The notes under the pieces: model-generated
What the model was told of the DNA's origin: nothing
Databases searched by the model: none
What the model saw: only the letters and a program-made list of their open reading frames with translations
Made by a program: the position numbers and the translations under genes
Assembly: GCA_024104275.1 (NCBI GenBank)
Contig: JAGGHK010000008.1
Coordinates: forward strand, 1 to 64,000
Direction: 5' to 3'
From: Bifidobacterium sp.
Lineage (GTDB): Bacteria; Actinomycetota; Actinomycetes; Actinomycetales; Bifidobacteriaceae
DNA length: 64,000 nt
In this document: in pieces, positions 10,168 through 51,015 of the stretch
How positions within the stretch are numbered: the stretch's first letter is position 1
Layout of the letters: each line of letters starts with the position of its first letter

Positions 10168-11475
10168 TTACAGGCAGAAGGCGGCGTAGAGCGGCACGCT
10201 TTCGATGCTGTTTTCGTTTCCGAAGTTCTTGGTGGAGAGTCGGATGGCTCGTTGCGGCCGGTACTTGGACTTATAGACGTTGAGGCTGCGCGAGCGGACG
10301 TTGTCGGATGACTTGACTTCAAGCGGCGTGGCGGTGCGCAGTGACGCCGGGTCTCCGAGCGCGGCGACGAAATCCACTTCCGCATCGCTGTTGCTTCTCC
10401 AGTAGCGCAGGGTGTGGCCGCTTGTCGTGAGCGCTTGCGCCACATAGTTTTCAGTGAATGCGCCGAGGTTGAGCGAGCCGCGTAGCCGCGGGTTGAGCAA
10501 CGTTTCGACGGGCAGTTCGCTCATCGCGCCAAGCAGGCCGGTGTCGGCCATGTAGATTTTGAACGCCGAACGGTTCTCGTGCAGAGCGAGCGGAAGCTGG
10601 CCGGAAGTGATTTGTATGCAACGGTTCACCAGACCCGCGGTTTCCAGCCAGTCGAGCGCAAACGCGTATTGGCTTGCGCGTCCGCCGCTGTGGACGGTTT
10701 TGTATTGGAATTTGCGGTTTTCCTTGGCCAGTTGGGCGGGGGTGCTGTTGAACGCCTCGCGTATGCGGGCGGTTTCGGTGGGCGTGGCATATTTGGCCAT
10801 GTCGGCGACGTAAAGGTCGAGAATGTTGCGCTGTATGGTACGGATGCCGGGCCAATCGTGGCTGTCGGCGACGTAGGCGGCCACGGCTTCGGGCATGCCG
10901 CCGCAAAGCAGGTAGGCCCAGTAGCGGTCGAGCGCGTCGTCGTGGCGCACGTATTGTTCGGACAATTTGTATTGCGTTCGTATGCCGTCGCACATGGCCT
11001 CGTCGCCGAGCGCGAGCAAGAATTCATCGAAGCTCATCGGCCGCAACGTCATGGTTTCGACCTTGCCCACGGGCGCTGAGAACCCTTCGCGCTTGACAGC
11101 GACACCGAGCAGGCTTCCAGCGGCGATGACGAACGAGCCCGGCAGACTTTCATTGAAATATTTGAGGCTCGCCAGCGCACGGTTCGAGGCCTGGATCTCG
11201 TCGAGAATCACGAGCGTCTGGCTCGCGTCGATCGGCTTGCCTTGCACCTGGCCGAGTTTGCGCAGGACGGTTTTGGGATTGAGGTCACCGTCGAAGGCGC
11301 TGCGGGCGGCGGCATTGGCTTCGAGGTCGAAGTAGGCCATATCGGTGAACTCGTCGCGCCCGAAATGCCGGATGAGGTAGCTTTTGCCGGTCTGGCGGGC
11401 GCCGTAGACGAGCAGCGGCTTGCGCTCGCGGTTCCGCTTCCATGTGAGAAGCTGCTTGGTCGCGTTGCGATACAT
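10168..11475 (-). CDS. AAA-family ATPase with DUF4143 C-terminal domain (copy 1)
   Basis: A 435-residue cytosolic ATPase. The Walker A loop GARQTGKS is at 25-32, and Walker B is LVILDEIQ with the acidic pair at 92-93. A sensor-like AAGSLLGV follows. The C-terminal half is the DUF4143 region, ending with a restriction-nuclease-like fold pattern (SDAEVDFVAALGD followed by LEVKSSDNVRS). The family is widespread and its cellular role is unsettled. It is one of three paralogues here (also 12081 and 30885), which differ strongly in sequence. It has no partner gene in an operon. Its upstream region (11547-11620) holds a 32-bp-period repeat array unlike those before the other two copies. The ATG at 11475 precedes RNATKQLL, a usual family start. 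Confidence 0.85.
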   Translation of the reverse strand: MYRNATKQLLTWKRNRERKPLLVYGARQTGKSYLIRHFGRDEFTDMAYFDLEANAAARSAFDGDLNPKTVLRKLGQVQGKPIDASQTLVILDEIQASNRALASLKYFNESLPGSFVIAAGSLLGVAVKREGFSAPVGKVETMTLRPMSFDEFLLALGDEAMCDGIRTQYKLSEQYVRHDDALDRYWAYLLCGGMPEAVAAYVADSHDWPGIRTIQRNILDLYVADMAKYATPTETARIREAFNSTPAQLAKENRKFQYKTVHSGGRASQYAFALDWLETAGLVNRCIQITSGQLPLALHENRSAFKIYMADTGLLGAMSELPVETLLNPRLRGSLNLGAFTENYVAQALTTSGHTLRYWRSNSDAEVDFVAALGDPASLRTATPLEVKSSDNVRSRSLNVYKSKYRPQRAIRLSTKNFGNENSIESVPLYAAFCL

Positions 11476-11546
11476 ACTTTGCCCCCTGCTGCCGTAAGCC
11501 CGATTTACTTGTTCGTTTCGTATGTATTATAGCCGTTTACCGAAGT

Positions 11547-11620
11547 TATCTCCAAAAAAATGTAAGAAAATACATTTTTATCTCCAAAAAAATGTAAACT
11601 TCCACACTTTTCTGGAGATA
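11547..11620. repeat. Array upstream of DUF4143 copy 1: three elements at a 32-bp period
   Basis: TATCTCC begins at 11547 and 11579 (spacing 32). A third, inverted copy, GGAGATA, ends at 11620, where the next period would fall. The intervening AAAAATGTA/TACATTTTT forms a hairpin at about 11555-11578. The array is 70-145 bp upstream of the ATPase start, a position suited to operator sites. Confidence 0.6.
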
Positions 11621-11701
11621 AATAGAAAATAGGCACTGCGGCAAAGGCCGTTTGCAAGTCGACTGATTAAGTTTGATTTTCCGTTGCAATTACTGGGTTT
11701 T

Positions 11702-11790
11702 CACGTAATCAAAGGTATCGAAATGGCTCAGGATACACGGGATCAAGGGTATCGATACCGTTGAAAATACACGGAATCAAGGCGTGGGAT
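11702..11790. repeat. Three direct repeats at an exact 34-bp period
   Basis: The motif CACGGAATCAAGG (variants CACGTAATCAAAGG and CACGGGATCAAGGG) starts at 11702, 11736 and 11770. The first two also share GTATCGA downstream. The array sits in the 600-bp spacer between DUF4143 copies 1 and 2, where no gene is seen. Confidence 0.6.
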
Positions 11791-11839
11791 TTCCGGCACC
11801 GGTAAAGACGAGGTGGAATTGCGCATCTAAAAAACGTCA

Positions 11840-12077
11840 AGGTGCATAATTTTTACGCCAGCGTCGGAAATAGTATCGTTGCGACATTTTGGGCCGCTGG
11901 GCCTTGGTGAGTGGCTTAAAATGGCGGAAGTGCTGAGGTTGCGCCATTTTTGGGTCGCCAGCGTCGGAAAAGTGCATCTTGCGAGCGGCAAAGCGCACCT
12001 TTTTGACGGTGGAGTCAAAATAGTGCGCTTTGGGTGAGCTAACTTGCATATTTATGACGGTACCGTCAAAAACATGC
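11840..12077. repeat. Five palindromic units at a 50-51 bp period, 3' of DUF4143 copy 2
   Basis: The right halves of successive units (GTCGGAAA, GGCTTAAA, GTCGGAAA, GTCAAAAT, GTCAAAAA) start at about 11863, 11913, 11963, 12014 and 12065. The identical 14-mer GCCAGCGTCGGAAA is at 11857 and 11957, exactly 100 bp apart. Each unit is an imperfect palindrome; the clearest has TTTTGAC/GTCAAAA nested in GCGCAC/GTGCGC at about 11993-12027. The last unit ends at the stop codon of copy 2. Confidence 0.65.
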
Positions 12078-12080
12078 GCT

Positions 12081-13250
12081 CTAGTCGATGATCTGCTGCA
12101 GGTCGTGCAGGGAGAGCAGCCGGCCCCATTTGGTGTTGAACGATTGGTCGCCGCCGTAGACCACGATGCGGTGGTCCTTGTCGACGCCGAGGTCATCGCT
12201 CAGCTTGGTGATGTTGGCGAAGGCGTGTGAATCGTAGGTGGCTGAGGCCTTGATTTCTATGGCGTACTCGACTTCCCCGCTCTTTTCGATGATGAGGTCG
12301 ATTTCGGTGCGCGAATAGTCCCGCAAGTAATAGAGCGTCGGCGTGCGGCCGATTGCGTAGTAGCGCTTGATGATCTCGCTAACTACCGCGTTTTCGAACA
12401 GGGCTCCCCGCCGTTGGCTCAGCAGCAGCGCGCTAGGGCTGTCGATGTTGAGCAGATAGGCGGCCAGTCCGCTGTCGTAGAAGTAGAGTTTGGGTGTTTT
12501 GACAAGCCGCTTGCCGTAATTCTTGTAATACAGATAGAGGCGGAAGGCGATGAAGCTCGATTCCAGGATCGAAAGCCAGTCCTGCGCGGTCTTGTAATCG
12601 ATTCCCGAGTCCGTCGCAAGCGAGTTGACGCTAAGCATCTCGCCGGCACGCGAGGCGCACTGCGTGAGGAACCTGCGGAACGCGGAAAGTTTGCGCACCC
12701 CGAGTTCGTCGCGCACGTCGCGTTCGACGTAGGTGTCGATGTAGTTGGGGAAGTAGTCGGGCGGGTCGATGTGCTTGTCGTAAAGGCGCGGGTATCCGCC
12801 CTGCCATGTCCACGCGTCCATGGTCTTGGGGATGTCCTCGGCGGCGGTGAGTTCGGCGAAGGATAGTGGGAGCAGGTAAAGCACAGCGACTCGGCCGGCC
12901 AGCGATTGCGAGATGCTGTTGAGCAGGAGGAAATTCTGCGATCCGGAAAGGATGAATTGCCCGGGGCGTTGCCATCTATTGTCCACAATGCCCTGCAGAT
13001 AAGAGAAAAGTTCCGGGGTGTGTTGGGCTTCGTCGAAGATGACGTGGTCGTCATAGGTGTCGAGGAATCCTCGCATGTCCTGCTTGGCCAGCCGGTTGAC
13101 GTCCGGGTCTTCCATGGAAACGTAACGGAAGTCGGGGAACAGCTCGCGCAGCAGTGTCGTTTTCCCGCTCTGCCTCGTTCCGGTCAGCGAGATAATCGGG
13201 AATTTGGTGGCCATGTCGCGAATTTTATCGCTGATTGTCCGTGGTAACAT
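12081..13250 (-). CDS. AAA-family ATPase with DUF4143 C-terminal domain (copy 2)
   Basis: A 389-residue protein of the same family as the neighbour at 10168 but divergent. Walker A GTRQSGKT is at 24-31 and Walker B VIFDEAQH has its acidic pair at 73-74. The segment ILSGSQNFLL is sensor-like, and the C-terminal DUF4143 part ends with SRTEIDLIIEKSGE and YAIEIKAS, a nuclease-fold-like core. I chose the ATG at 13250 (MLPRTISDK), with GAGG about seven bases upstream; the frame runs 75 bp further up without a family-like sequence. It is bracketed by arrays: seven 23-bp repeats upstream and five 50-51-bp palindromes downstream. The role is unknown, and I see no toxin, nuclease or transposase partner. 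Confidence 0.85.
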   Translation of the reverse strand: MLPRTISDKIRDMATKFPIISLTGTRQSGKTTLLRELFPDFRYVSMEDPDVNRLAKQDMRGFLDTYDDHVIFDEAQHTPELFSYLQGIVDNRWQRPGQFILSGSQNFLLLNSISQSLAGRVAVLYLLPLSFAELTAAEDIPKTMDAWTWQGGYPRLYDKHIDPPDYFPNYIDTYVERDVRDELGVRKLSAFRRFLTQCASRAGEMLSVNSLATDSGIDYKTAQDWLSILESSFIAFRLYLYYKNYGKRLVKTPKLYFYDSGLAAYLLNIDSPSALLLSQRRGALFENAVVSEIIKRYYAIGRTPTLYYLRDYSRTEIDLIIEKSGEVEYAIEIKASATYDSHAFANITKLSDDLGVDKDHRIVVYGGDQSFNTKWGRLLSLHDLQQIID

Positions 13251-13285
13251 CGTTTGCCTCGTATTCTGCGGTTTTCTGCATGCTG

Positions 13286-13446
13286 CTCCATAAATTTTGA
13301 CATCTCTATTCCCGAACTTTAGCAAGCTCTACTCCAGAATTTTTGCAAGGCCTACTCCATAGATTTCGCTGGGGCTGCTTCCGAATTTTCCTTTGGTTCA
13401 CTCCATAGATTTTGCAGGATTTACTTTGGAATTTTCGCATGGCAAT
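13286..13446. repeat. Seven tandem repeats at an exact 23-bp period upstream of DUF4143 copy 2
   Basis: Consecutive 23-bp units start at 13286, 13309, 13332, 13355, 13378, 13401 and 13424 with no indel. The approximate consensus is CTCCATAGATTTTGCAAGG; units 2, 5 and 7 are more divergent (TTCCCGAAC, CTTCCGAAT, CTTTGGAAT). The array starts 36 bp before the ATPase start codon and fills most of the gap to the thioesterase gene. It is not coding in any frame I can support. Confidence 0.8.
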
Positions 13447-13488
13447 ACAGGAATTTCGAGAGAGGCGTTTGCGGAATCCGGCTCGTGG

Positions 13489-13854
13489 CTATTGGCGTTC
13501 GCGGACGGCTAATGTCACTGTCGAAACGCTCGTGAGCTTGCTGCCCATACGCACCTCCACGCGCCATGTTTGCAACGTTTTACCGACGTTTTCGGGGGTT
13601 GCGGTGGCGGTCAGCGTGCCGGACGTCACGGGGCGGAAATGATGCGTGCTGATGTCCACACCGACGGCGATATGAGAGGCGTCGAGCCGTGCCATGGCGC
13701 CCAAACTCGCGGCCTCCTCGGCCAAAACCGCGTTGACTCCGCCGTGCAGGATGCCAAACGGTTGTAGAACGTTTTCGGTAACCGGCAATGTTAAAATGAC
13801 TTTTGACCGCGAGATTTCCTGTTGTTTGATGCCCAGATAATTCGCAAGTGACAT
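13489..13854 (-). CDS. Hotdog-fold thioesterase, PaaI / DHNA-CoA hydrolase type
   Basis: A 121-residue single-domain hotdog protein that would hydrolyse an aromatic acyl-CoA. The family signature FGILHGGVNAVLAEEAAS (33-50) holds the HGG turn and the likely catalytic acid at 46 or 47. The ending TWRVEV...VSTVTLAV is typical. I favour the start MSLANYLGI at 13854, with GAGG nine bases upstream and the usual family beginning. An in-frame ATG seven codons earlier (13875) directly follows GAGGTGA and is possible. The gene is divergent from menB across a 138-bp spacer. This suggests it is the DHNA-CoA thioesterase that acts right after MenB in menaquinone synthesis, but a general aromatic thioesterase cannot be excluded. 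Confidence 0.8.
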   Translation of the reverse strand: MSLANYLGIKQQEISRSKVILTLPVTENVLQPFGILHGGVNAVLAEEAASLGAMARLDASHIAVGVDISTHHFRPVTSGTLTATATPENVGKTLQTWRVEVRMGSKLTSVSTVTLAVRERQ

Positions 13855-13992
13855 GATACCGAACCTCGCATTCACCTCGATAACTTCATATCTTTACGTC
13901 ATACGGCCAAACGTATCGCCGACGAGCGCGTGCTCGGTTGCGACGTGTCGGTCGTATGGAGCTGTGACATGACGTATCCATAAGGAGCCACC

Positions 13993-14850
13993 ATGACAGC
14001 GAGCCAGAACGTTGAGCACCGGTCAGACCGGCAGCAGCGCACGTTCGAGACCGTCAAAACGTATGACGAAATACTGTTTGAACGGCTCGAGCATATAGCC
14101 AAAATTACCATCAATCGGCCCGAGAAGCGAAACGCTTTCACGCCGAAAACCATCGAGAAGCTGATCGATGCCTTTACCATCTGCCGCGATGACGCGACGA
14201 TCGGCGTCATCATTTTCACCGGCGCGGGCGATCTCGCCTTTTCGTCGGGCGGCGACCAGGGCGTGCGCGGCAACGGCGGCTACGTCGGCAGCGACCACGT
14301 CGCGCGCCTGAACGTGCTTGATTTGCAGCACCTCATCCGCATCATCCCGAAGCCTGTCATCGCGATGGTCAAGGGCTGGTCGGTCGGCGGCGGCAACGTG
14401 TTGCAGCTGGTCTGCGACCTGACGATCGCGGCAGACAACGCCAAGTTCGGCCAGACCGGGCCCAAAGTCGGCAGCTTCGACGCGGGCTACGGCCCTGGCC
14501 TGCTCGCTGACGTGATCGGCCAGAAGCGCGCGAAGGAAGTCTGGTTCCTGGGCCACTTCTACACGGCCGAAGAGGCCCTGCAGATGGGCTGGATCAACAA
14601 GGTCGTGCCGCTCGCCGACATCGAAACCGAGACGCTCAAGTGGTGCGACGAGCTCTTGACCAAGTCGCCCATGGCCCTGCGTTTCATCAAGGCCTCCATG
14701 AACGCGGCGACCGACGGGCTCGCCGGCCTGCAGCAGCTCGGCGGCGACGCGACGATGCTCTTCTACACCACCGACGAGGCGAAGGAAGGCCGCGACGCCT
14801 TCAACCAGAAGCGCAAGCCCAATTTCGACCAGTTCCCGAAGTTCCCGTGA
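13993..14850 (+). CDS. menB: 1,4-dihydroxy-2-naphthoyl-CoA synthase
   Basis: A crotonase-fold enzyme that closes the second ring of the naphthoquinone nucleus from o-succinylbenzoyl-CoA. At 285 residues it has the normal length. MenB-specific sequence includes [10 protein letters not shown] (84-93), [12 protein letters not shown] (105-116), [15 protein letters not shown] (120-134), [17 protein letters not shown] (141-157), VGSFDAGYG (159-167) and the ending [13 protein letters not shown]. Gly156 in GQTGP matches the bicarbonate-dependent class. The ATG at 13993 has AAGGAG about eight bases upstream. Ordinary enoyl-CoA hydratases lack the SGGDQ and GQTGP blocks, so the call is firm. No other men gene is in the window. 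In bifidobacteria, usually thought not to make menaquinone, an isolated menB-thioesterase pair is notable. Confidence 0.93.
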
Positions 14851-14858
14851 TCGATACC

Positions 14859-14874
14859 TCTTGGCGCGCCAAGA
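14859..14874. repeat. 16-bp perfect palindrome after menB
   Basis: TCTTGGCGCGCCAAGA is a perfect palindrome nine bp past the menB stop. It lacks a T tract, so it is a weak terminator candidate. Its core TTGGCGCGCCAA also occurs at 3644-3655, suggesting a shared protein-binding site or repeat. From here to 15136 no gene is seen, apart from a doubtful 15-codon ORF at 15109. Confidence 0.4.
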
Positions 14875-15136
14875 AGCCCACATTCTGACATTTAACTCAG
14901 TATTTTCAACATTTTAGACATCAATATACAAACTGTTTAATTCATGAGCCGTCATGTGCTGAAAAGATAATAGTAAATGTTTTGAGCGAATGCGCTTTAC
15001 AAAGGGTTTATGCCAAAACGGCGTTTACGGAAAGAGAAGGGAAGGTCTTTTCGTGTCATAACGCACGTGCCGTGAGGTTCTAATTCGTAAGGCCAGGGGA
15101 GTGAAGATATGAAGTGGTTTGAGGGGACACGGAACG

Positions 15137-18100
15137 ATGAGGCATGCAGCTGGTAAGAAGCATAATGCAAGTGGGGAAACCAAGAAACAGCTGAAGTGGC
15201 TCGTGGCGATGGTGGCTGCGGTGGCGACATTGCTGAGCGGGGGGGGGGTGATTGTCTCGGCAAATCCCAGCGGCCCGAGTCCTTCCGGCAACTCGTCGCA
15301 ATCAGCCGCTGAACATAATAATAAGGTGGGCACTCAGGGTGACCCGGAGTACCAGTTCCTTAATTTCTCCCAGTCCGTTTACGGTGTCGACAGCGCGAAC
15401 CCGACGGCCCTCAAGCCCGGTGACAAATTCACCTATCAATTCAATCTCGGCTGCTCCGAGACCAACTGCGAAGACGCAAGCCTCGCCGATCGGCTCCCTG
15501 CGGCCCTGCAAGGTTTTGCGATCACCGATTTCACGGTCAGCCCGAGCCTGCAGGCGAACGTTCAATGGAAGGAAGGCGGGGTCGCCCAGCCTTCGATGCC
15601 TGCGATCGTTGGCGCCGGAACCTCCTTCACGCTGACCCCGGCCAGCAATTCGTTTCTGGCGGGACAAACAAAACTGGCTTGGTCGTCGGCGCCAACGCAT
15701 CGCAAGGATCGCAAACCGGCATACCTACGGCTTCGGCTCCGGCGGCGGTGACGCTTTCGCCCGCCCAGTTGAGTGTCACTGTGGGCGAGTCCTTCAGCCC
15801 GGCCCGCCATCTGGCCGGCAACAAATCGACCGGAACGGTTGCACTCACCAACGGCAACTCGTCGGTCGAAAAGATGGAAGCCACGGTCGGCAAAGGTTTC
15901 TTTAGCTCCGATATCCAGTTTGACGGGTTCAAAGACGCCATTGCATATCCGTCGGGCGCCGATAGCGGAACGGTCGTCTATCACATGCTTGATAACACCC
16001 AACCCAACCAGACGGTAACATTCGCGAACGGCGCGACCCCGGCTCCTCCCACCGGCGATATCGCTTCCTTCGACATCAAATTCGGTTCAACGCCGAGCAG
16101 GAGCGCCGACAATCCAATCGCCGCCAATGCGACCACTTCACTCACCTTCATCGTCAAATCGGCCAGTGCGCACACCTTCCCGTCCGGCCAGACCACGGAG
16201 GATTTCACGGACGCCGCTAAGGCCACAGTCACCGCGCACAACACGGCAACGGCCACCGGCAGTGCTCCCGCCGCGACCATGACATTGGTCAAGCCGCAGA
16301 TCAAGGTGACGGTCGGCAAGACGGTAAGCCCGAACGAGGCCGTCCCGATCGGGCATCCGGCCGTGGTTGGCTACTCCGAAACCATCGGCGCGAGCACCGA
16401 TTATCTGCAGCCCAATGTCGTCACCGTCGAGGATTCCTGGGTCGACAAGACCATCGACGCCTCCGGCACGATTCACCAAGGCATCCCCGAATCCGACGGC
16501 AATAATTTCTGGAACGTCTTCAACTTCAATGCCATCGAATCCACCCCGATTCCGGAGCATACCAAGCTCACGGTAAGCGTCAAGCTGCCCAGCGGCTGGG
16601 TCGATCTTGACGTCAGCCCCTCGCAAAATTCAAGCTATATCTATAGTCTTGACGCGGCCCATGTCAGAAGCAAACTCAGCGCCGCTCATTCCGGCGCAAC
16701 CCCGGACCAGGTGACGGGCATACGCTTCAAGCTCGAGTCGGACCCCGGCAGCACGGCTTTCTCCGGCAGCACCGCCATTGCGCAGTATGTCAGCTTCACC
16801 GCCCGCGCCAGCAAGCGCGACGGGTCTGGCGCAACCGACCTCGTCGATAACCCCGCCCCGCAGAAGCCGACGAAATACAACTCCGGCAACACCACCAGCC
16901 TTACCGCGTCCGGCACAACGGACGATGGCGATACAATCACCAGCAACGCGCTTGACGAGGATTCCATCAATCAGAATACGGTCGGCGTCCTTGCGTTCCG
17001 CGATCCGGCCTACAATTCCGGAGATGATTTCTACGCGGTCAATGACTGGATCAGCGCGACGTTCACCAATCCGGCCAAATCCGATGCGGATATGGCTTCC
17101 GTACCAGCTCTGTCCAGCAAGAACGTCACTTCTCACCTCAAATGGGGCATCGAAGGTGACATGAACTGGGTGACGCTCAAGCAGGCCGCCGATGTGACCG
17201 ATTACCCGGATGCGGGTGCACACAACGATATGTGGAACGACGTTTTCGATCTGGTTTCCATCAATCCCATCGCTACGTCCGACACGCCCTACACCAATGG
17301 CTGGTACCTCAAATACGACAAGATCACGCAGGTGCGGATTTACCAAGCGGGCAGTACCTGGAACACCGGTAGCTGGTCGGTAGTGCCGGCTCCTGGCGGA
17401 AGTTGGCAAAACGCCGACCATTCCTTCAAGGGCTATACGCCGTCGGCAGGCGCGATCACTGGCTTTGAGATCACCCTCGAACCTGATGATGCCGCTCGCA
17501 CCGCAGACATCACAGCAGTTAAACCCTACGTTCCAGAGCCAGGCACCGGCATCGTGGCAGCGGCCCAAACCCGTGATTTCGCGGCGAACTGGAAGCTGCG
17601 CGACAAGAAACGGAGTACGAACTCTTTCGTCACTGGAAGCGTTTCGGGCGTCGGCACGAGCCACGCTCAGCCGCAGAACGTCAGGTTGGATTCCCAAAGG
17701 GCAACGCCCGAAGATCCCGTCCATCACCCGAGCACGGTGGACTATAGGGCACTGAGCGGCGGAAAAATCAATATCGCGGACTACAAGGCGGGCGTCAAGG
17801 AACGCGACGAAGGAACGTATGACCTTCTGGTTCCGCCGCATGGCGTTTCCGCGCCTGCAAGTTCCTATCCGACGCAGACATATGACATCTCCGCGACCAA
17901 CTATTCGCCGAACCGCGCCTCGTACCTGCGCATCGTCACACCATCAGAATGTGATACAACTAACCAGACCGGCTGCTATACGGCCAATACCTCGCTGGGT
18001 GCTACGCAGAACCCGTTCACCGTGTCTCAGATTCCCGATATGCGTACCGGCAAACTCGATTCCGCCTCGACGATGCCCAATATGTTCAATCGACAGACGC

Positions 18101-22338: not shown

Positions 22339-22358
22339 CCCGATAGTCGATTGAAGTC

Positions 22359-22389: not shown

Positions 22390-22550
22390 AACTTTTCAAC
22401 GAAGATTTACGTAAAAATAAATAATATTAACTTTTAGTAAGTCCGAATAGTGAGACGTATGAGGGTTTCGGCTTCTGGTCGCGCCTAAGATAGCTCACTA
22501 AACGGGTCACGAACCCGAAAGAACTTGGTAAATGTTGAAAGGAGGACGCC

Positions 22551-22622
22551 ATGAAGAACGGATTGATGAGTTTCAACGCGCAGTCTGCACGAATTATTAG
22601 CCCGTCTTCGTTGGCGGCCTGA
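22551..22622 (+). CDS. 23-codon leader peptide candidate
   Basis: The ORF reads MKNGLMSFNAQSARIISPSS then LAA and stop. It is preceded by AAAGGAGG seven bases before the ATG, one of the best ribosome binding sites in the window, so translation is likely. Five of 23 residues are serine and six are alanine or glycine, with no run of one amino acid as in classical amino-acid leaders. About 20 bp downstream begins a set of mutually exclusive RNA stems ending in a terminator, which suggests a regulatory role. The next gene is an MHS-family transporter at 23043. A stalling peptide, an uORF or a small functional protein are all possible. Confidence 0.5.
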   Translation: MKNGLMSFNAQSARIISPSSLAA

Positions 22623-22641
22623 TTTTTCACATTCAGCTTGA

Positions 22642-22761
22642 GCCCCGCCAATGAAGGCAGGGCAAGCAAGCAAATCGTTCAGTCGAACGAGTAACGATAT
22701 TCAAACAAATATCTAGCGTATAGCTTTCTTCAGCCCTGCATTCAAACGCAGGGCTCTTTTT
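22642..22761 (+). promoter_or_regulatory. Attenuator-like alternative RNA stems and terminator
   Basis: Four segments can pair in two ways. Segment 1 (22642-22649, GCCCCGCC) pairs with segment 2 (22656-22663, GGCAGGGC). Segment 2 (22657-22663) is also perfectly complementary to segment 3 (22733-22739, GCCCTGC). Segment 3 with segment 4 (22748-22755) forms an 8-bp terminator followed by TTTTTG. So 1:2 with 3:4 would stop transcription, while 2:3 would let it continue toward 23043. This is the logic of translation-coupled attenuation, with the leader peptide ending 20 bp before segment 1. The remaining spacer to 23042 shows no other feature. Confidence 0.5.
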
Positions 22762-23042
22762 GTTATTACGCCCCAAAAGGTCACCGTGGTAATGCCGCAA
22801 GTTCGTGCACGAACATAACTGAAATACTCGATAACTCAACAAAGCAAAACTCAAAACCGACTACACGGCCAGGATCCACCGCATACCGCAAGGATTCCGG
22901 GTCGGCTAGCCCGCGAAACGCAAGACGCAAGAAGTGCCAGACGCAACGCAGGCCGCGGGCGGGGAGAGCGGCGAAGAGCGACGAGAGAACGAATGAAGCA
23001 GTAATCGGTACGGAAAAGACAGACGTACCAGAGGAGAACATC

Positions 23043-24440: not shown

Positions 24441-24721
24441 GGTCAGGTTCAGTAGCAATCTGAATTTATAACTGAATATTCATAATTAAAAAGCAAAATA
24501 AAGATTTGAAAGCGGCTTATGATTTGGGATTTTCGTCTCAATTCTTAAAAATTATCTGTTCGATAATTGGACGGTGACACGGCTTGCGCTGTGACCGGCG
24601 TTACAATGGACGAACTACGGGACAAAATCCCTTTTCGATCAAGAGCCAATTTCTAGGCCGTGGCAGGCAGATTGCCTTTGCCCGGCACAATCAATAATAA
24701 ATTATGCAAGGAGTGCATATT

Positions 24722-25777
<1,056 letters not shown>

Positions 25778-25835
25778 GCTTGCTGAAGGTTCTTGCCAGC
25801 TAGTCTGAGAATTTCGATTAGTTTTCAGGGTTTAA

Positions 25836-25873
25836 AGGTTGTCATCGGGTTTCGCCCGGTGGCAGCCTTTTTT
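25836..25873 (+). terminator. Intrinsic terminator after ilvC
   Basis: GGTTGTCATCGGG pairs with CCCGGTGGCAGCC (two G.U pairs) around TTTCG, followed by TTTTTT. It lies about 60 bp past the ilvC stop. Confidence 0.9.
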
Positions 25874-25983
25874 GATGTGTGGATTGCGACAGTTAATGCA
25901 TTTTTCGCGGCTTAATTGTTCTGAGCAAAGAGAATCTACTTAACTTCGAAGAGAAACACCAATAAAGTAGAAATAATTTCTTG

Positions 25984-26007
25984 CTAGTGATAATATATTT
26001 TTACTAG
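25984..26007 (+). promoter_or_regulatory. Possible -10 region and operator before the GntP permease
   Basis: CTAGTGATAATATATTTTTACTAG is AT-rich with inverted ends (CTAGT and ACTAG) around a TAATAT box, 28 bp before the permease start codon. It could be the -10 region overlapped by an operator for the DauR-like regulator encoded downstream. That link is inferred from position only. Confidence 0.35.
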
Positions 26008-26034
26008 GAACTGTTTCACTACAAAGGAGTTGAG

Positions 26035-27381
26035 ATGAGCACAGGTCCATTATTGGTTGTTCTGCTTATCGCCATCGCCGTGATAGTGCTGTTGATCGTC
26101 AAAGTCAAGATGCATCCGTCTCTGGCTTTGCTGATTGCCGCATTCTTCGTGGCGTTTGTGACGAAGGTGCCATTGGGCAAGATCACCGATACGATTCAAA
26201 ACGGTGTGGGGGATACCCTCGGATTCCTCACGCTGATTATCGGCTTCGGCGCCGTCCTGGGCAAACTGCTTGAGGTATCTGGCGGGGCCCAGCGTCTTGC
26301 GTCGACGATGCTGCGGGTTTTCGGCAAAAAGCACGCCACCATCATCATGGCTTTGCTGGGATTGATTTGCGGCATTCCGGTATTCGTCGAGGTAGGTTTC
26401 GTGCTCTTGGTCCCGCTGGTGTTTGTGGTGGCCAAGGAAGCGAGAATTTCCCGTTTGAAGGTCGGCATCCCGCTGGCCACCTCACTGATGGTGGTCCATT
26501 GCATTCTGCCTCCGCACCCCGCCGCGACGGCCATCGCCGGTACCTTGCACGCCGATATCGGCACCGTTATCCTGCTCGGTCTGTGCGTCGCCATCCCGTC
26601 GGTATTGATCGGAGCCGTTCTTTTCGCGCATTTTGCGATTCCCGAGAAGGATGACCCGAACGAGAAACTCGAAGAGGATCCGTCCGCCAATTTCGTGGAG
26701 AAGGATGAGAAGGATCTTCCCGGCTTCGGCATTACGCTCTTCACCATTCTTCTGCCGCTGCTCATCATGGTGGCACGCACGATCTGCGAGCGTGTGCTCC
26801 CCGCGGACATGTTGGCCATGAAGTGGATCAACGTCATCGGCAATCCGATCACGGCGTTGATGCTTTCGTTGCTGTTCGCCTATTTCTCGCTCGGCCTTCA
26901 CCGTGGCATGAATATCGAAAAACTGCAGACCCTTACGGACAGCTCGTTCGGCCCCATCGGCGGCATTCTGCTGATTATTGGCGCCGGCGGTGCGTTTAAC
27001 GCGGTCCTCACCGCTTCCGGCGTGGCCCCGAGCCTGGCGAAGGTTCTTTCCGGACTGCCCGTCAGCCCGATTATCCTGGCTTGGCTTATCGCGCTGATCC
27101 TGCATTTCGCCGTGGGTTCCGCCACGGTCGCGATGATGAGCGCTGCGGGAATCGTGCTGCCTATGCTGACCGCTACGCCGGGATTGTCTCCGGCAATCAT
27201 GGCACTCGCCATCGGAGCCGGTGCCATCGGCCTCACCCACGTTACGGACTCGCTGTTCTGGATGGTCAAGGAATATCTGCATATCACTGTTCCGCAGGCT
27301 TATAAGACATTGACAGTCGGCACCACCATCACATCCGTTGTGGCGCTGTGCATGACTCTGCTGCTGAGCCTGTTCGTCTAA
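26035..27381 (+). CDS. GntP-family permease, probable D-serine transporter (DsdX-like)
   Basis: A 448-residue multi-helix importer of the gluconate/D-serine GntP family. It shows LGKLLEVSGGAQRLA, CGIPVFVEVGFVLLVPL, the conserved HCILPPHPAATAIAG and, near the end, AVGSATVAMMSAAGI and GLTHVTDSLFWMVKEYL. The AAAGGAG site lies four to five bases before the ATG. It is followed 100 bp downstream by D-serine dehydratase and then by a D-amino-acid-type regulator. The family pattern fits gluconate as well as D-serine; the neighbours make D-serine by far the better guess. Confidence 0.88.
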   Translation: MSTGPLLVVLLIAIAVIVLLIVKVKMHPSLALLIAAFFVAFVTKVPLGKITDTIQNGVGDTLGFLTLIIGFGAVLGKLLEVSGGAQRLASTMLRVFGKKHATIIMALLGLICGIPVFVEVGFVLLVPLVFVVAKEARISRLKVGIPLATSLMVVHCILPPHPAATAIAGTLHADIGTVILLGLCVAIPSVLIGAVLFAHFAIPEKDDPNEKLEEDPSANFVEKDEKDLPGFGITLFTILLPLLIMVARTICERVLPADMLAMKWINVIGNPITALMLSLLFAYFSLGLHRGMNIEKLQTLTDSSFGPIGGILLIIGAGGAFNAVLTASGVAPSLAKVLSGLPVSPIILAWLIALILHFAVGSATVAMMSAAGIVLPMLTATPGLSPAIMALAIGAGAIGLTHVTDSLFWMVKEYLHITVPQAYKTLTVGTTITSVVALCMTLLLSLFV

Positions 27382-27481
27382 CTGCGCAAAGCAACACCTA
27401 TATATCTATATTCCGAACGTTCATTAATCCGTTGCGTATCGATGGATATTCGGCGGAAGTAAAGGAAACAAAGGAGTCGAA

Positions 27482-28831
27482 ATGACAAAAGAAGTATTGG
27501 GAAAGCCGATCAGCCAGTGGGTTGACGAATTTCCGTTGATTGATACGCTGATGAAGGAAGAGGAGACGACGTGGTTCAACGACCGTCTGCAGTCCACCGA
27601 GCAAGGCATGAAGCAGGTCGGGTTGAGCATCAAGGACGTCGATGACGCCGCCGCGAGGCTCAAGCGTTTCGCGCCTCTGATCGAAGAGCTGTTCCCATCT
27701 ACCAAGCCGACGGAAGGAATCATCGAATCCCCGCTGGTCGCCGTTCCCGATCAGCGCCACGCACTTTCGAAGCGTTATGGGCAGGAGCTGCCGGGGCAGC
27801 TGTGGGCCAAGCTGGACAGCGAGCTTCCCATCAGCGGTTCGATCAAGGCCCGTGGCGGCATCTACGAGGTGTTGAAGCACGCCGAGGATTTGGCGATGGA
27901 AGCTGGGCTCCTTACTTATGATGATGACTATCGCAAGCTGGGAACCCCCGAAATGCGTAAGTTCTTCGGCCAGTACAAGATCGCCGTAGGTTCGACGGGC
28001 AATCTCGGCCTGTCCATCGGCATCATGAGTGCGGCGCTTGGCTTCGATGCCAGCGTGCACATGTCTGCGGACGCCCGCCAATGGAAAAAGGACAAGCTTC
28101 GCGCCAACGGCGTGCACGTTTTCGAGTATGAGCAGGATTATTCGGTGGCTGTGGCGGCTGGCAGAAAAGAAGCGGAAGCCGATCCGATGGCCTACTTCAT
28201 CGACGATGAGAATTCCTCCACACTCTTCCTGGGCTATGCGGCGGCGGGCCGTCGTCTCGCCGGCCAATTGCAGGCTTGCGGCGTCGAGGTCGACGAGGAC
28301 AACCCGCTGTTCGTTTACCTGCCTTGCGGCGTCGGCGGCAGCCCGGGCGGTGTCGCGTTCGGTATGAAGACGGTGTTCGGCGACAATGTTCATTGCATCC
28401 TTGCAGAACCGACGCATTGCCCGTCAATGCTCATCGGCACCTACACCAAGGAATACAACAACGTCTGCGTACAGGACTTCGGCATCGACAACGTCACGGC
28501 GGCCGACGGGCTGGCTTGCGGCCGTCCCTCGCAGTTCGTCTGCAAGGCCATGGAGCATCTTATCGACGGATTCCTGACCATCGACGATGACGAGCTCTAC
28601 CGCATTGAAGCCCAGCTTCATAATGCGTGCGATATTGATATCGAGCCTTCTGCGGCCGCTGGTTTCGTGGGCCCGTGGCGCGTGCTTGCCGGCAAGGAAT
28701 ACCGTGATCGCATAGGCCTTGACGACACCAAGATGGCGCACGCCACCCACGTCTCGTGGTGCACGGGCGGCTCGATGGTTCCTCGCGACGAGATGGCATC
28801 GTATATCGAGAAGGGGAATGGCCTGCTGTAA
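27482..28831 (+). CDS. dsdA: D-serine dehydratase (D-serine ammonia-lyase)
   Basis: A PLP enzyme that splits D-serine to pyruvate and ammonia, both feeding catabolism and relieving D-serine toxicity. It has 449 residues, close to the E. coli enzyme. The PLP lysine is Lys122 in [44 protein letters not shown], the phosphate-binding CGVGGSPGG and the ending [13 protein letters not shown] are family-specific. AAAGGAG lies before the ATG. It forms a likely operon with the GntP permease (100-bp gap) and perhaps the regulator at 28954 (122-bp gap). dsdA is not a standard bifidobacterial gene, so this module may be acquired or niche-specific. Confidence 0.96.
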
Positions 28832-28953
28832 AGCCGGAATTTTGAAGTGATGTTTTCGTCAGGCGTGTGTGATGTTTGCCGTGCTGCGCCTGGCGATTTT
28901 TATATCCCTTTCCTTGAAACGGGATACGGCTGCTGTATATAGGAGGAAGTCCG

Positions 28954-29724
28954 ATGGATGAGCAGGATCCTTTGCAATCAGATGCATACCATGGCTACGA
29001 ATATGATGGGGGTATGGCAACAAAACGATTTTCTCGCGCTCGCAATGCGGAAGAGGAAAAACTCGATACGGAATTGCTCCAGCAATTCGTTCCGCTGGTC
29101 GAGTTCCTCGGCAAAGTGCTCGGACCGAGAAGTGAGGTAGTGCTTCACGATGCTTCCAAGGCCGACAAATCCGTTATCGCGATTGCCAACAATCAAGTTT
29201 CCGGGCGTCAGGTGGGCGCGCCCGCGACCGATTTTATGCTCAGGCTATTGCAGGAAGGCAATGCGAACGGCAAGGATTATGTCGTCGGTTACCAAGGAAG
29301 AACGGCACTGAGCAAAAATGCCTTGATATCGTCCACGTATCTGATTCGGCGAAAGAAGCGGATTATTGGTGCGTTATGCATCAACACCGATCAGACACCA
29401 TTCCTCAGGCTGGAACGAGCGCTGGAAGAGGTGGGCGCTTCCTACTCGTTTGCAGCCCAAGACGAGACGCCTCAGTCGCATGAGGAGGAAAATCTCATCA
29501 CCTCGATTGAGGATGTCGCCTCCGGGGTGATTGCCGATGCCAGCGCCAAGGCCGGTACGGACGTCGAATCCTTCGGTTTGGACCAGCGTCTTGCCGTGAT
29601 TTCGCAGTTGAACGATCAGGGTTATTTCAATTTCAAGGGTTCGGTCGCCAAAGTCGCCAAGCAGCTGGGTATCTCGGTATCGACGACATACCGTTATCTG
29701 CATATGATCGACGATCAGCAATGA
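28954..29724 (+). CDS. YheO/DauR-like transcriptional regulator
   Basis: A 256-residue DNA-binding protein. Residues ~40-150 form a YheO-type PAS-like sensor domain (FLGKVLGPRSEVVLHDAS, KNALISSTYLIRRKKRIIGALCINTD). After a ~50-residue acidic linker comes a C-terminal helix-turn-helix (about 205-250) ending AKQLGISVSTTYRYLHMID. The same two-domain plan occurs in DauR, a repressor of D-arginine use, so a D-amino-acid ligand is plausible. The AGGAGG site is six bases before the ATG. It sits directly after dsdA and probably controls this module, in place of the LysR-type DsdC known from enterobacteria. The regulatory link is inferred from context. Confidence 0.85.
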   Translation: MDEQDPLQSDAYHGYEYDGGMATKRFSRARNAEEEKLDTELLQQFVPLVEFLGKVLGPRSEVVLHDASKADKSVIAIANNQVSGRQVGAPATDFMLRLLQEGNANGKDYVVGYQGRTALSKNALISSTYLIRRKKRIIGALCINTDQTPFLRLERALEEVGASYSFAAQDETPQSHEEENLITSIEDVASGVIADASAKAGTDVESFGLDQRLAVISQLNDQGYFNFKGSVAKVAKQLGISVSTTYRYLHMIDDQQ

Positions 29725-29764
29725 GTTTTCCTGTACGGGAAGGCCGGTATTTGTTCGTCGCTTG

Positions 29765-29819
29765 GAGGGTTCGGCAAGGGGCGTCATTGGGTTTTGATTC
29801 GTTGCCGGCCCCTCTTTTA
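29765..29819 (+). terminator. Terminator of the D-serine module
   Basis: GAGGGTTCGGCAA (29765-29777) pairs with TTGCCGGCCCCTC (29802-29814) with one mismatch and one G.U pair, followed by TTTT. From here to 30266 (about 450 bp, AT-rich) I see no gene; it presumably holds the promoter for 30267. Confidence 0.6.
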
Positions 29820-30266
29820 TGGTCGAGCATGCTCAACATATTTTATTTATAAAGCTACGGTGAGCAGTGGGATGATTGCGGAATGTACTCCTGAATAATC
29901 GTAGAATAACTGTTCAGCGGTTGCCGAATAACCAGACAGTTTCGTTGTGTGGAGCTTGCGTTGCATTGTATGGTGTCATCGTTATGTGACGTACTTAACA
30001 ACGAATCAAAAACATTAAAACGAAATAATGGCCTTGGCGTGACGCTGAAGCGTTCTCCCGTATGTTCTAGGTCATAATTAGACAAATATGCATCAAACGC
30101 CATATGCGAACGTGGACGTCATCTCGCGCAATACTAGGCAAAACGCGAAGACGATAATGCGATACGCTTCTTAGACATTACAAAAACAAAGAAATTTGTA
30201 CCAGCGCAGAAATGGCACCACAAGTGCCGACAAGAGGTAACGCGCAATGTTCTAAGGATGACAGCC

Positions 30267-30746
30267 ATGACCACACGTAACGAATTCAACAAGCAGACCG
30301 ATTTTGCAAGCGGGCAGGCCAACTTTACGGCTCAGCGCGGCAACGCTGAAAGCAAGCAGGCCGACTTCGCGCAGAAGCAAGGTTCCGCGATCATGCATAG
30401 CGACCTTGCCAGGAAGCGCAACTTTGCAAGTGGTTATGGCTTCGCAGGCAATGAAGAGAATATTGCAGGAAAACAGCGCAACTTCGCCGGAGAAAAGGCC
30501 AACGCTGTCGGCAAGCAAGGCATCCTCTCCCGTTTCGGTTCATGGAAGCACGCCATCATGATGGCGGTCGTCTTCATCTGGGTCGCGGTCGTCTGCTTTG
30601 CCGCGTTCAAGGCGCTGGATACCGAAACCATAGTGACAGAGGGCCCTCAGACGGTCTCCGCGACCTATGAGCAGAAGCAGGCCGATGCCGACAAGTCCGC
30701 CGCCCCGGTTCCTTCCGTTTGGTTGGACGTGCAACAAACTTCATGA
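30267..30746 (+). CDS. Small single-pass membrane protein with repetitive N-terminus
   Basis: A 159-residue protein I do not recognise. Residues 1-88 are built from degenerate ~10-residue steps around (K/R)Q-x-(D/N)F-A (NKQTDFASGQANF, SKQADFAQKQG, ARKRNFASGYGF, GKQRNFAGEKANA). One hydrophobic helix (about 95-117, AIMMAVVFIWVAVVCFAAF) is followed by a ~40-residue tail. The ATG at 30267 has AAGGA upstream at usual spacing, better than the ATG at 30258. The repeats are polar and Ala/Gly-rich and probably not a folded enzyme. The basic residues just before the helix suggest the N-terminus is cytosolic. A terminator follows at 30797. Function unknown. Confidence 0.65.
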   Translation: MTTRNEFNKQTDFASGQANFTAQRGNAESKQADFAQKQGSAIMHSDLARKRNFASGYGFAGNEENIAGKQRNFAGEKANAVGKQGILSRFGSWKHAIMMAVVFIWVAVVCFAAFKALDTETIVTEGPQTVSATYEQKQADADKSAAPVPSVWLDVQQTS

Positions 30747-30796
30747 TGTTCGAGCTCTTGGCTGATACTCAATTTTGTAATTTAGGCGTTCTTGAC

Positions 30797-30840
30797 GGCC
30801 GGTTTCCAACATGGCGCAGATTCCATGTCGGAAACCGGCC
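30797..30840 (+). terminator. Long hairpin between the small membrane protein and DUF4143 copy 3
   Basis: An 18-bp nearly perfect inverted repeat (30797-30814 against 30823-30840, GGCCGGTTTCC...) is followed by ATTTTC. It lies between convergent genes and could terminate both. Its GGCCGGTTTC arm resembles an arm of repeat family B. Confidence 0.65.
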
Positions 30841-30884
30841 ATTTTCATTTGCGACTCTGCGGCTTGGGGATTGCGGCAGCGACA

Positions 30885-32078
30885 CTACTGATTTTCCAAC
30901 AGCCAATCGAGCAGATTCTCCTGCTTGATGCCGGCGTGGTCGCCGTTGCCGATATGGTCCAGAGTCAGTAGGGTTTTAGGATGATTGTCTTCGATGCTTT
31001 GCAGTGGTGCGAGTTCGCGGGCAAGCGTCGCGTTGTCGAGCACGGTCTGCGAGACTTGGAAGTAATGGACTCCATCGGCATTGGTTGCGCAAAAGTCGAT
31101 TTCTTTGCTACCGATTTTGCCAATAGAAACGGTGCGATAACGCCGCAAGAGTTCAAGGTAGACCACATTTTCGATGCGGTGGCCGGTGTCGCCGCCTGAT
31201 TTGCCGAGAAACCAGAACCTGAAGCCGGTGTCTCCCAAGTAATATTTTTCCGTCGTTTGCAGGTAGGATTTGCCTTTGATGTCATAACGATCGGCGCGGA
31301 ACAGCAAATAGTTTTCGCACAGCGCCGATATATATTCGCGGACCGTATTCCGGGAAACGGAGGCGTGCTCCTGTTTCATCGTGTTGGCAATGCCGGTTAG
31401 CGAGGTGAGATTGCCGACGTTATCAGCTAGGAACGCAGCTACTTCGCTAAATGCCGTCATATCTATTTTGGGACGTCTCGTGGCGATGTTTTTCACCAAG
31501 ATGGTGTTGAACACGCCGCCGAGATAGTCGGCGATGCTCTGTTCGTCGTCAAGATAGGTGGTATAGGGCAGGCCCCCGTAAGTGAGATAACGTTCGAACG
31601 ATTGGTCCGAGGTCTCCGATTCAGGCCGAGTGGTTTGATATTCGGCAAACGAAAGCGGGAACATGTTGAGTTCGACGTAACGGCCGGTCAGCAGTGTCGC
31701 GAGTTCGCTGGAAAGTAGCTTCGCGTTCGAGCCGGTGATGTAGATATCTGTATCTTTGCGGATGTATAGCGCATCGACTGTTTTTTCGAAATGCTCGACA
31801 TGCTGGATTTCATCGAGAAAGATATAGTTTTGGCCGGGCTGCAGACGTTTGAGTATGTAATCGTATAGCGGTTTGGCTTCGGTTGGGTAGTCGTCGTCCA
31901 AGCTTTCGAAGTTGATGGCGATGATGTTCTTGGGATTGACGCCTTCTTCGGCGAGGTGATTACGGAAGATTTCGAGTATCTTTGATTTGCCGCTGCGGCG
32001 CATGCCCGTCACTACTTTGATGGGTTCCTTGTCGCGCCAGCGTTCCAGCCAATCCAAATAATAAGGACGATTAATCAT
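30885..32078 (-). CDS. AAA-family ATPase with DUF4143 C-terminal domain (copy 3)
   Basis: A 397-residue member of the same broad family as 10168 and 12081. Walker A GMRRSGKS is at 25-32, Walker B IFLDEIQH has its acidic pair at 89-90, and YITGSNAKLLSSELATLLTGRYVEL is the sensor and linker. The C-terminal DUF4143 part contains ATRRPKIDM...LADNVGNLTSL and the nuclease-fold-like GSKEIDFCATNAD. The ATG at 32078 has GGAG seven bases upstream; a TTG two codons earlier is less likely. Just upstream lie four 14-bp palindromes at an exact 40-bp period, the first 17 bp from the start codon. No partner gene is linked, and the function is unknown. Confidence 0.85.
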   Translation of the reverse strand: MINRPYYLDWLERWRDKEPIKVVTGMRRSGKSKILEIFRNHLAEEGVNPKNIIAINFESLDDDYPTEAKPLYDYILKRLQPGQNYIFLDEIQHVEHFEKTVDALYIRKDTDIYITGSNAKLLSSELATLLTGRYVELNMFPLSFAEYQTTRPESETSDQSFERYLTYGGLPYTTYLDDEQSIADYLGGVFNTILVKNIATRRPKIDMTAFSEVAAFLADNVGNLTSLTGIANTMKQEHASVSRNTVREYISALCENYLLFRADRYDIKGKSYLQTTEKYYLGDTGFRFWFLGKSGGDTGHRIENVVYLELLRRYRTVSIGKIGSKEIDFCATNADGVHYFQVSQTVLDNATLARELAPLQSIEDNHPKTLLTLDHIGNGDHAGIKQENLLDWLLENQ

Positions 32079-32095
32079 TTTCAAGCTCCAAACCC

Positions 32096-32229
32096 GTCAA
32101 TATATTGACCAGTTTAACATAAAAATTAAAAAACGGTCAGTCTGTTGACTGATTTTATATGAAAGTTAAAAAACCGTCAGTCTATTGACAGGACTTTCTA
32201 TTTTGGATGAAAGATGTCAATAGACTGAC
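32096..32229. repeat. Four 14-bp palindromes at an exact 40-bp period upstream of DUF4143 copy 3
   Basis: GTCAATATATTGAC (32096), GTCAGTCTGTTGAC (32136), GTCAGTCTATTGAC (32176) and GTCAATAGACTGAC (32216) are spaced exactly 40 bp. All keep the ends GTCA and TGAC; the fourth is the inverted form of the third. AT-rich spacers include AAAGTTAAAAAAC-like repeats. The first element begins 17 bp before the ATPase start codon, so binding there could block its transcription or translation. Confidence 0.85.
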
Positions 32230-50976: not shown

Positions 50977-51015
50977 ACGTAGAAATGCGATGGTAAATTT
51001 CGCCTGATCGGTTGG

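What the first reader, a model, noticed from the sequence alone, without database searches (positions are those of the whole stretch)
10168..32229. Each of three DUF4143 ATPase genes has its own upstream repeat array
Copy 1 (10168) is preceded by a 32-bp-period array, copy 2 (12081) by seven 23-bp repeats and copy 3 (30885) by four 14-bp palindromes at exactly 40 bp. Sequences and periods differ, but position (17-145 bp before the start codon) and regularity recur. A family-wide trait of ATPase plus private iterons would resemble partition, plasmid-replication or self-regulated mobile modules. The role of DUF4143 proteins is unsettled, so this is a lead to it.
Basis: partly seen in the sequence, partly recalled or inferred. 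Interest (0 to 1): 0.85.

Follow-up and report, generated by a model that had tools for sequence, protein, structure and literature searches.

The report
Private operator arrays guarding ATPase genes
A huge, little-understood family of bacterial and archaeal ATPase genes, suspected of fighting viruses, often carries just in front of each gene a private set of repeated DNA sites whose spacing goes with the protein subfamily, which suggests that each protein binds and controls its own gene and gives a direct way to test what the family does.

Summary
All three window genes encode AAA_14-DUF4143 proteins, each with its own upstream array (32-, 23- and 40-bp spacing). Across relatives the repeat sequence differs from gene to gene, but the spacing follows the protein subfamily: 22-23 bp (copy-2-like), 32-33 (copy-1-like), 39-41 (copy-3-like), 15 in homologous DUF234 ATPases of archaea and bacteria. 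Held-out loci in the class fixed beforehand: 31/33, 17/22 and 11/12 (control rates 16%, 7%, 5%). In other phyla copy-2 relatives often carry one palindrome of about 33 bp built from a similar half-site, cores again 22 bp apart. In the window genome strong motif hits lie only in these arrays and one gene-less relic. Arrays of copies 1 and 3 overlap promoter-like sequence; the proteins have a predicted winged-helix region. Best reading: each ATPase binds, and probably represses, its own promoter through a private operator lattice. PADLOC lists these families as antiphage candidates PDC-S01 and PDC-S27, unvalidated. A replication or partition role is not supported; modules come and go and leave orphan arrays. 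The papers I could search did not describe the arrays. Binding and expression are untested.

The parts
10168..11475 (-). copy 1: AAA_14 + DUF4143 ATPase (c1 subfamily, 435 aa)
   Evidence: Pfam E 1.5e-21 and 6.1e-30; PADLOC PDC-S01
11546..11622 (-). copy 1 proximal array: exact 20-bp units at 11546-11565 and 11578-11597 (32 bp apart), plus an inverted partner at 11603-11622
   Evidence: only two matches to the unit with up to 3 mismatches in the 2.16-Mb genome, both here
11526..11554 (-). promoter-like site TGGAGA-17-TATAAT; the -35-like hexamer lies in the last repeat
   Evidence: 10 of 12 matches; consensus match only, mean 0.9 found in shuffles
11677..11806 (-). orphan array (best period 34 at 11702-11782): relic of a module of the L009 type, without its gene
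   Evidence: aligned over about 131 bp with the upstream of paralog L009
12081..13250 (-). copy 2: AAA_14 + DUF4143 ATPase (c2 subfamily); likely ATG start at 13250
   Evidence: Pfam E 4.3e-28 and 6.3e-45
13283..13436 (-). copy 2 array of degenerate 23-bp direct repeats, about 6-7 units, 33-186 bp before ATG 13250
   Evidence: of 7 genome-wide motif hits 4 are here, 1 is an array relic near L009 and 2 have 2 mismatches (reversed-pattern control: 3 hits)
30885..32078 (-). copy 3: AAA_14 + DUF4143 ATPase (c3 subfamily); nuclease motif degenerate
32096..32229 (-). copy 3 array: four 14-bp palindromes at 40-bp spacing (32096, 32136, 32176, 32216)
   Evidence: genome-wide all 3 hits with at most 1 mismatch are here, the other 7 of 10 have 2 mismatches (reversed-pattern control: 4 hits)
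32152..32180 (-). promoter-like site CTGACG-17-TAAAAT whose -35-like hexamer lies in an operator
   Evidence: 9 of 12 matches; consensus match only, mean 0.8 found in shuffles

Best explanation
Each gene is a one-gene module: a protein with a P-loop ATPase, a winged helix-turn-helix region and a PD-(D/E)XK nuclease-like domain, preceded by its private operator. The protein binds several copies of the operator through the winged helix, oligomerises along the DNA with a register fixed by its subfamily (15, 22-23, 32-33 or 40 bp), covers its own promoter and keeps its own expression low until an unknown trigger. Shown here by sequence: family-wide occurrence, private sequence, subfamily-linked spacing, a similar half-site in tandem and inverted form (c2), overlap with promoter-like sequence (copies 1 and 3), and no strong copies elsewhere in the window genome except a relic. 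Inferred: binding by the protein itself, the sign of control (repression), and a link to antiphage defence.
For: Spacing tracks protein subfamily: c2 45/47, c1 26/32, c3 23/36 in the genus; held-out c2 31/33 (without one gene fetched twice), held-out c1 17/22 versus 1/46 neighbours, held-out DUF234 11/12, and 19/20 in all, versus 1/39 neighbours; control rates. Half-sites learned from 35 cross-phylum palindromes find same-strand pairs 22-23 bp apart in 16/47 c2-like loci of the genus versus 0/256 controls, 0/32 c1, 0/36 c3. Cross-phylum c2 relatives: palindrome z>=3 in 43/80 versus 33/256 neighbours, consensus with outer cores 22 bp apart and centre a median 38 bp before the start. Motifs essentially private genome-wide. 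Motif more conserved than the rest of the unit in c3 orthologs (mean 1.48 versus 0.55 bits, 38 units), with gain or loss of one 40-bp unit. Promoter-like overlap; in several c3 relatives two operators flank a TATAAT-like box (by eye). HTH: the c2 alignment matches DUF234 ATPases nearly full length (hhalign 99.3%), across the HTH that Pfam finds in a DUF234 protein; weak HTH_36 hits in 18/51 members at E up to 5, best 0.0012. The c3 group lost the nuclease Glu and Lys in 36/36, yet 19/36 scored c3-like genes have significant arrays, so DNA binding looks more central than cutting.
Against: No binding, expression or phage data exist. Of 80 cross-phylum c2 loci, 26 pass neither the tandem (p<=0.0025) nor the palindrome (z>=3) test (counted). 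Of 36 c3-like genes in the genus, 20 miss p<=0.005 or the spacing class. The window genome's own DUF234 gene has a 33-bp, not 15-bp, array, and only 7/23 same-phylum DUF234 loci show 15. Some in-class loci are not significant on their own (11/22 held-out c1, 8/12 held-out DUF234 reach p<=0.0025). Protein-operator co-variation points to the winged helix only weakly (partial rank correlation 0.08-0.28 in the genus; in the pooled set the nuclease region scores higher). Paralogs of one genome are not clearly more distinct than expected, so selected orthogonality is not shown. No promoter-like site was found at the copy 2 array. Orthologs are not independent, so p-values are too small.
Confidence: 0.65

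Rival explanations
1. The arrays are ends or target sites of a mobile element: gene plus array moves, and the array serves excision or insertion rather than expression.
For: Modules come and go: a relative (G002) keeps copy 1 and the flank beyond copy 2 but lacks copy 2 there; copy 2 orthologs in G057 and G054 lie in other contexts. Arrays of one type remain as orphans beside other paralogs.
Against: In the window genome strong hits to the copy 1 and copy 3 motifs occur only upstream, with no partner copy downstream. The one junction examined showed no clear target duplication. Promoter overlap and constant spacing are not needed for ends.
Confidence: 0.12
2. Iterons of a replication or partition system encoded by the ATPase.
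For: ATPase plus iteron-like repeats; relatives occur on plasmids (562 plasmid records with a match).
Against: Up to 22 matches per genome in the genus, in the window among transporter and enzyme genes; plasmids with a copy of this or the sister family carry separate rep, ParA or Orc1/Cdc6 genes; Pfam finds no ParA or Rep domain.
Confidence: 0.04
3. The element works in RNA: a 5' leader hairpin or attenuator that controls translation or transcript stability.
For: Single long palindromes lie close to, and sometimes touch, the start codon.
Against: Direct-repeat forms use a similar half-site to the inverted forms and need no hairpin; window arrays reach about 150-190 bp upstream and hold -35-like boxes.
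Confidence: 0.07
4. Other host regulators bind the arrays.
For: Promoter operators of defence islands can be bound by separate regulators, for example RptR (PMC12255303).
Against: Spacing follows the ATPase subfamily across phyla and both domains, while motifs differ from gene to gene; that would need a separate co-travelling regulator for each gene.
Confidence: 0.1
5. Neutral tandem-repeat slippage in AT-rich intergenic DNA.
For: Arrays are AT-rich and vary in unit number; 46 of 283 control genes also score.
Against: Dinucleotide-shuffle nulls and neighbour genes; motif conserved while the rest of the unit diverges; spacing shared across phyla.
Confidence: 0.02

Closest known systems
PDC-S01 and PDC-S27 (PADLOC phage-defence candidates; DUF4143 and DUF234 ATPases)
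   Same: The three window proteins hit PDC-S01 models and the DUF234 protein hits PDC-S27; ATPase fused to PD-(D/E)XK as described in PMC12988326 (passages read)
   Different: In the passages read they are described as genes only; the private upstream lattice is an added feature. Defence role unvalidated.
RptR, repressor of a type I restriction-modification island (PMC12255303; abstract and passages read)
   Different: RptR is a separate small regulator with a 6-bp site in 9-bp repeats; here the large ATPase itself is the proposed binder and sites are private and 15-40 bp apart
Archaeal ATPase of PDB 2fna (that this is SSO1545 is recalled)
   Same: Nearest solved relative of the c2 profile by sequence (E 4.2e-06)
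   Different: Match covers the ATPase part only (profile positions 11-139); I know of no operator
Autoregulated toxin-antitoxin operons and plasmid iterons (recalled)
   Same: Protein encoded beside its own repeated or palindromic sites
   Different: One gene, no antitoxin seen; no evidence for replication

Membership tests
PDC-S01 (PADLOC) | Match to PDC-S01 profiles | tested here: met
   E 6.7e-151, 7.2e-99 and 7.3e-150 for copies 1-3
PDC-S01 (PADLOC) | Embedded in a known defence system (how the candidates were found, PMC12988326 passages) | tested here: inconclusive
   10 nearby window proteins scanned with Pfam: seven with transporter, enzyme or regulator families, three with none; no defence family seen. 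PADLOC was not run on them
PDC-S01 (PADLOC) | Antiphage activity | not testable with these tools
   PMC12988326 (passages) says validation is pending for most of these candidates
PD-(D/E)XK nuclease (c1, c2) | E-x-D ... E-x-K residues | tested here: met
   Alignment A1 (51 rows, five of them c1-like): E, E and K 51/51, D 50/51; A3 (c1): E, E and K 31/31, D 22/31, 8 E, 1 N. Residues only; activity not tested
PD-(D/E)XK nuclease (c3, copy 3) | E-x-K residues | tested here: not met
   Glu position is Gln or Arg, Lys position Ser, Thr or Cys in 36/36
Winged-helix DNA-binding protein | HTH region in the protein | tested here: inconclusive
Autoregulatory operator | Sites overlap the gene's own promoter | tested here: inconclusive
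   Promoter-like sites overlap for copies 1 and 3, none found for copy 2; starts not mapped
Autoregulatory operator | Encoded protein binds the sites | not testable with these tools
   needs a binding assay
ParABS partition or iteron replicon | ParA/ParB or Rep initiator protein | tested here: not met
   Only AAA_14 and DUF4143 pass their Pfam cut-offs
Transposable element | Matching ends on both sides and target duplication | tested here: not met
   Copy 1 and 3 motifs: strong hits only upstream; no clear duplication at the one junction examined

The most novel reading that the evidence does not exclude
The array is more than an operator: it is a docking lattice on which the ATPase-nuclease is parked as an ordered oligomer whose register is a subfamily constant. 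Infection or another trigger releases it, which at once lifts repression and arms the protein, making a one-gene, self-contained immune circuit. Private motifs let up to about twenty such circuits run side by side in one genome, and the tens of thousands of PDC-S01 and PDC-S27 genes of bacteria and archaea share this design.
Probability: 0.18. Interest if true: 0.95.

Novelty: new variant of a known kind. Interest (0 to 1): 0.8.

Why it matters
DUF4143 ATPases (PDC-S01) were reported as the fourth most common defence system across prokaryotes (9,986 in archaea and 29,494 in bacteria; PMC12988326, passages read), yet their activity is unvalidated. A predictable, gene-private DNA site gives a concrete candidate ligand to test, helps to mark true starts, and sorts subfamilies by one number, the repeat spacing. 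If the protein is its own repressor, loss of repression would offer a readout for what triggers it.

Tried and rejected
Replication or partition, RNA leader, mobile-element ends, foreign regulator and neutral slippage were considered (see rivals). Selection for orthogonal motifs inside a genome: tested on 79 c2-like genes (53 within-genome pairs; one gene was in the set twice, as L032 and L350), no clear signal; one of the four identity bins with a test gave p 0.03. Mapping the DNA-reading region by co-variation gave only weak partial correlations. Profile searches of PDB found only an ATPase-part relative. Ten paper searches listed no paper that I saw to describe the arrays. This is weak evidence of absence: only open-licence papers are held, the source preprint of PDC-S01 (Payne 2024, bioRxiv, cited in PMC12988326) is not held, and several listings were capped (59 papers for the word start DUF234, 15 listed, mostly on type VI secretion; 2,403 and 6,783 papers listed; 96, 15 listed).

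Spacing classes were set on the first sets and then tested. The first c2-like set includes L007 and an L085 ORF, and the c3-like set L014 and L015, which are distant relatives.
Full report
What is there. The window lies on contig C18 of an unnamed 2.16-Mb genome; from recall its gene content suggests Bifidobacterium, but no call names it. It holds three genes whose products carry an AAA_14 ATPase domain and a DUF4143 domain. Each has a repeat array directly upstream. Copy 3 has four 14-bp palindromes starting at 32096, 32136, 32176 and 32216, exactly 40 bp apart. Copy 2 has a degenerate 23-bp array at 13283-13436. Copy 1 has two exact 20-bp units 32 bp apart with an inverted partner. A second array further upstream of copy 1 (11702-11782) is of another type and is discussed below.

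Is it family-wide? The genome has 17 DUF4143 rows, two of which look like pieces of one broken gene. Most paralogs show repeats upstream, different from one another, by eye. Over 115 distinct genes from this genome and relatives, 87 have self-periodicity at p<=0.005 against 200 dinucleotide shuffles, versus 46 of 283 control genes. The controls are not clean: the strongest include a dispersed 61/62-bp repeat of this genome, an array shared with a divergent DUF4143 gene, and orphan arrays.

The spacing rule. Sorting the 115 genes by which window protein they resemble best gave the main result: the best period goes with the protein subfamily. Copy-2-like genes have 22-24 bp or a multiple in 45/47, copy-1-like genes 32-34 or 66 in 26/32, copy-3-like genes 39-41 in 23/36; the same classes occur in 16.1%, 7.2% and 4.1% of 539 control genes. 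The classes were then tested on new loci. Thirty-three further copy-2-like genes of the genus: 32/33 significant (p<=0.0025), 31/33 at 23 or 46 bp (leaving out one gene fetched twice). Twenty-two copy-1-like genes from elsewhere in the phylum: 17/22 in class versus 1/46 neighbours, 11/22 significant versus 0/46. Copy-1-like genes in IMG/VR contigs: 13/20 in class, 10/20 significant tandem repeats versus 4/45 neighbours. Copy-3-like genes outside the genus: 7/13 at 40-41 bp; in IMG/VR contigs 11/37 have significant repeats versus 1/91 neighbours, 8 of the 11 at 40 or 75-82 bp, the other three at 32, 67 and 95; in several the far pair brackets a TATAAT-like box, by eye.

The sister family. ATPase_2-DUF234 proteins align with DUF4143 c2 proteins over most of their length (hhalign probability 99.3%, E 3e-20, 322 columns). 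On eight haloarchaeal plasmids their upstreams have best period 15 in 8/8; a held-out set of 12 (eight archaeal, four bacterial plasmids) gave 15 in 11/12, 8/12 significant at p<=0.0025, versus 1/39 and 0/39 neighbours. DUF234 genes of the window's phylum agree less well: 7/23 at 15 bp, though 12/23 carry a palindrome with z of 4.0 or more; the window genome's own example has 33 bp. These are exceptions to the rule.

Palindromes in place of arrays. More often a palindrome stands just before the start codon: z>=3 in 43/80 versus 33/256, score>=12 in 32/80 versus 10/256. Counted by hand from these two calls, 54/80 pass at least one test, against at most 51/256 neighbours. Centring the 35 with z>=4, odd centre and within 80 bp gives one consensus, aTTtTACAAATTgGaAATT.AATTtCcAATTTGTAaAAat, centre a median 38 bp before the start. 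Its outer cores lie 22 bp apart, the same as the tandem spacing. A half-site matrix trained only on these palindromes finds same-strand pairs 22-23 bp apart in 16/47 copy-2-like loci of the genus, 4/45 of the remaining cross-phylum loci, 0/256 neighbours, 0/32 copy-1-like and 0/36 copy-3-like. So tandem and inverted forms look like two layouts of one kind of site. The same change is seen at one orthologous gene: a relative's copy 1 has one palindrome where the window has the 32-bp array (by eye). Three plasmid-borne relatives also have a palindrome, perfect or imperfect, before the gene (by eye).

Private sites. In the window genome the copy 1 unit occurs only twice, both in its array; the copy 3 motif within one mismatch occurs only in its array (3 of 3; seven further hits have 2 mismatches, reversed-pattern control 4 hits); the copy 2 motif has four hits in its array, one in a relic beside paralog L009 and two with 2 mismatches (control 3 hits). 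There is no sign of a regulon. In nine copy 3 orthologs operators stay 39-40 bp apart with one exception of 37; the 16-bp motif carries 1.48 bits per position and the rest 0.55 (38 units). One ortholog differs from another by one 40-bp unit.

Modules and relics. Relative G002 has copy 1 and the flank beyond copy 2 but lacks copy 2 there; copy 2 orthologs in G057 and G054 (87-89% DNA identity) sit in other contexts. The distal array of copy 1 matches the upstream of paralog L009 over about 131 bp, and L009 in turn has a copy-2-type relic upstream. Other gene-less arrays are listed in Noticed in passing. Modules therefore come and go, and arrays can stay behind. No clear target duplication was seen at the one junction examined.

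How it most likely works. Domain order is ATPase, predicted winged helix, PD-(D/E)XK-like. The winged-helix assignment rests on alignment with the HTH of a DUF234 protein and weak HTH_36 hits in 18/51 proteins. Copy 1 has a promoter-like TGGAGA-17-TATAAT whose -35 lies in the last repeat; copy 3 has a promoter-like site with its -35 in an operator and a TG.TAAA.T stretch between the last two operators that is invariant in six sequences. Copy 2 shows no such site. I infer cooperative binding by the encoded protein along its array, blocking its own promoter. The c3 group lost the nuclease residues in 36/36 proteins, and 19/36 scored c3-like genes have significant arrays, so the DNA-binding part seems more basic than cutting. 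The paralog with a mutated Walker A lysine, L013, also has an in-frame stop and no significant array, a single case.

What is known. PADLOC assigns the proteins to PDC-S01 and, for DUF234, PDC-S27. PMC12988326 (passages) calls PDC-S01 the fourth most common defence across prokaryotes, found by guilt-by-embedding, with validation pending for most such candidates; PMC13356809 (passages) counts 10,358 in rumen genomes. The one paper in the library that names DUF4143 lists a Thermus gene downstream of a CRISPR locus (one passage). RptR (PMC12255303, abstract and passages) is the nearest known logic, with a separate regulator. I saw no description of the arrays in ten paper searches, several of them capped.

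Limits. Orthologs are related, so p-values are too small; the held-out sets are better but not phylogenetically corrected. Start positions in most sets were approximated from the Walker A position. Co-variation with the winged helix is weak, and orthogonality within genomes is not shown. Nothing here shows binding, repression or defence.

Noticed in passing
window 37375-37554 and upstream of several control genes: A 61/62-bp repeat, about three copies here; the same spacing recurs upstream of several unrelated control genes of this genome; looks like a dispersed intergenic element.
   Followed up: no
L053 about 13200-13370 (contig C17): A 23-bp array (motif CTAATGTAGGATTA) without a recognisable DUF4143 gene after it; the following 120-aa ORF has no Pfam match.
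   Followed up: partly
L058 about 14950-15150 (contig C14): A 33-bp array (CCTAGGGTAAAACTGGCA) upstream of a TatD-like gene; by eye the same motif precedes the DUF4143 gene of locus L120 in a relative.
   Followed up: partly
L013 (contig C14): DUF4143 paralog with Walker A lysine changed to glutamate, an in-frame TGA and no significant upstream array.
   Followed up: partly
L065 about 6600-7530 (contig C3): A copy-2-like gene in pieces; a faint 23-bp periodicity remains upstream of one piece.
   Followed up: no
L058:12202-13647: DUF234 ATPase of the window genome with a 33-bp rather than 15-bp upstream array, an exception to the spacing rule.
   Followed up: partly
window 50899-50977: Two-copy 40-bp tandem repeat (GTGTGCAGGAGGGTTGA core).
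   Followed up: no
copy-2-like loci of the genus, for example L346, L347, L348: In 7 of 34 newly scored loci the best period is 46, not 23, so units alternate in pairs; may reflect amplification of two-unit blocks.
   Followed up: no
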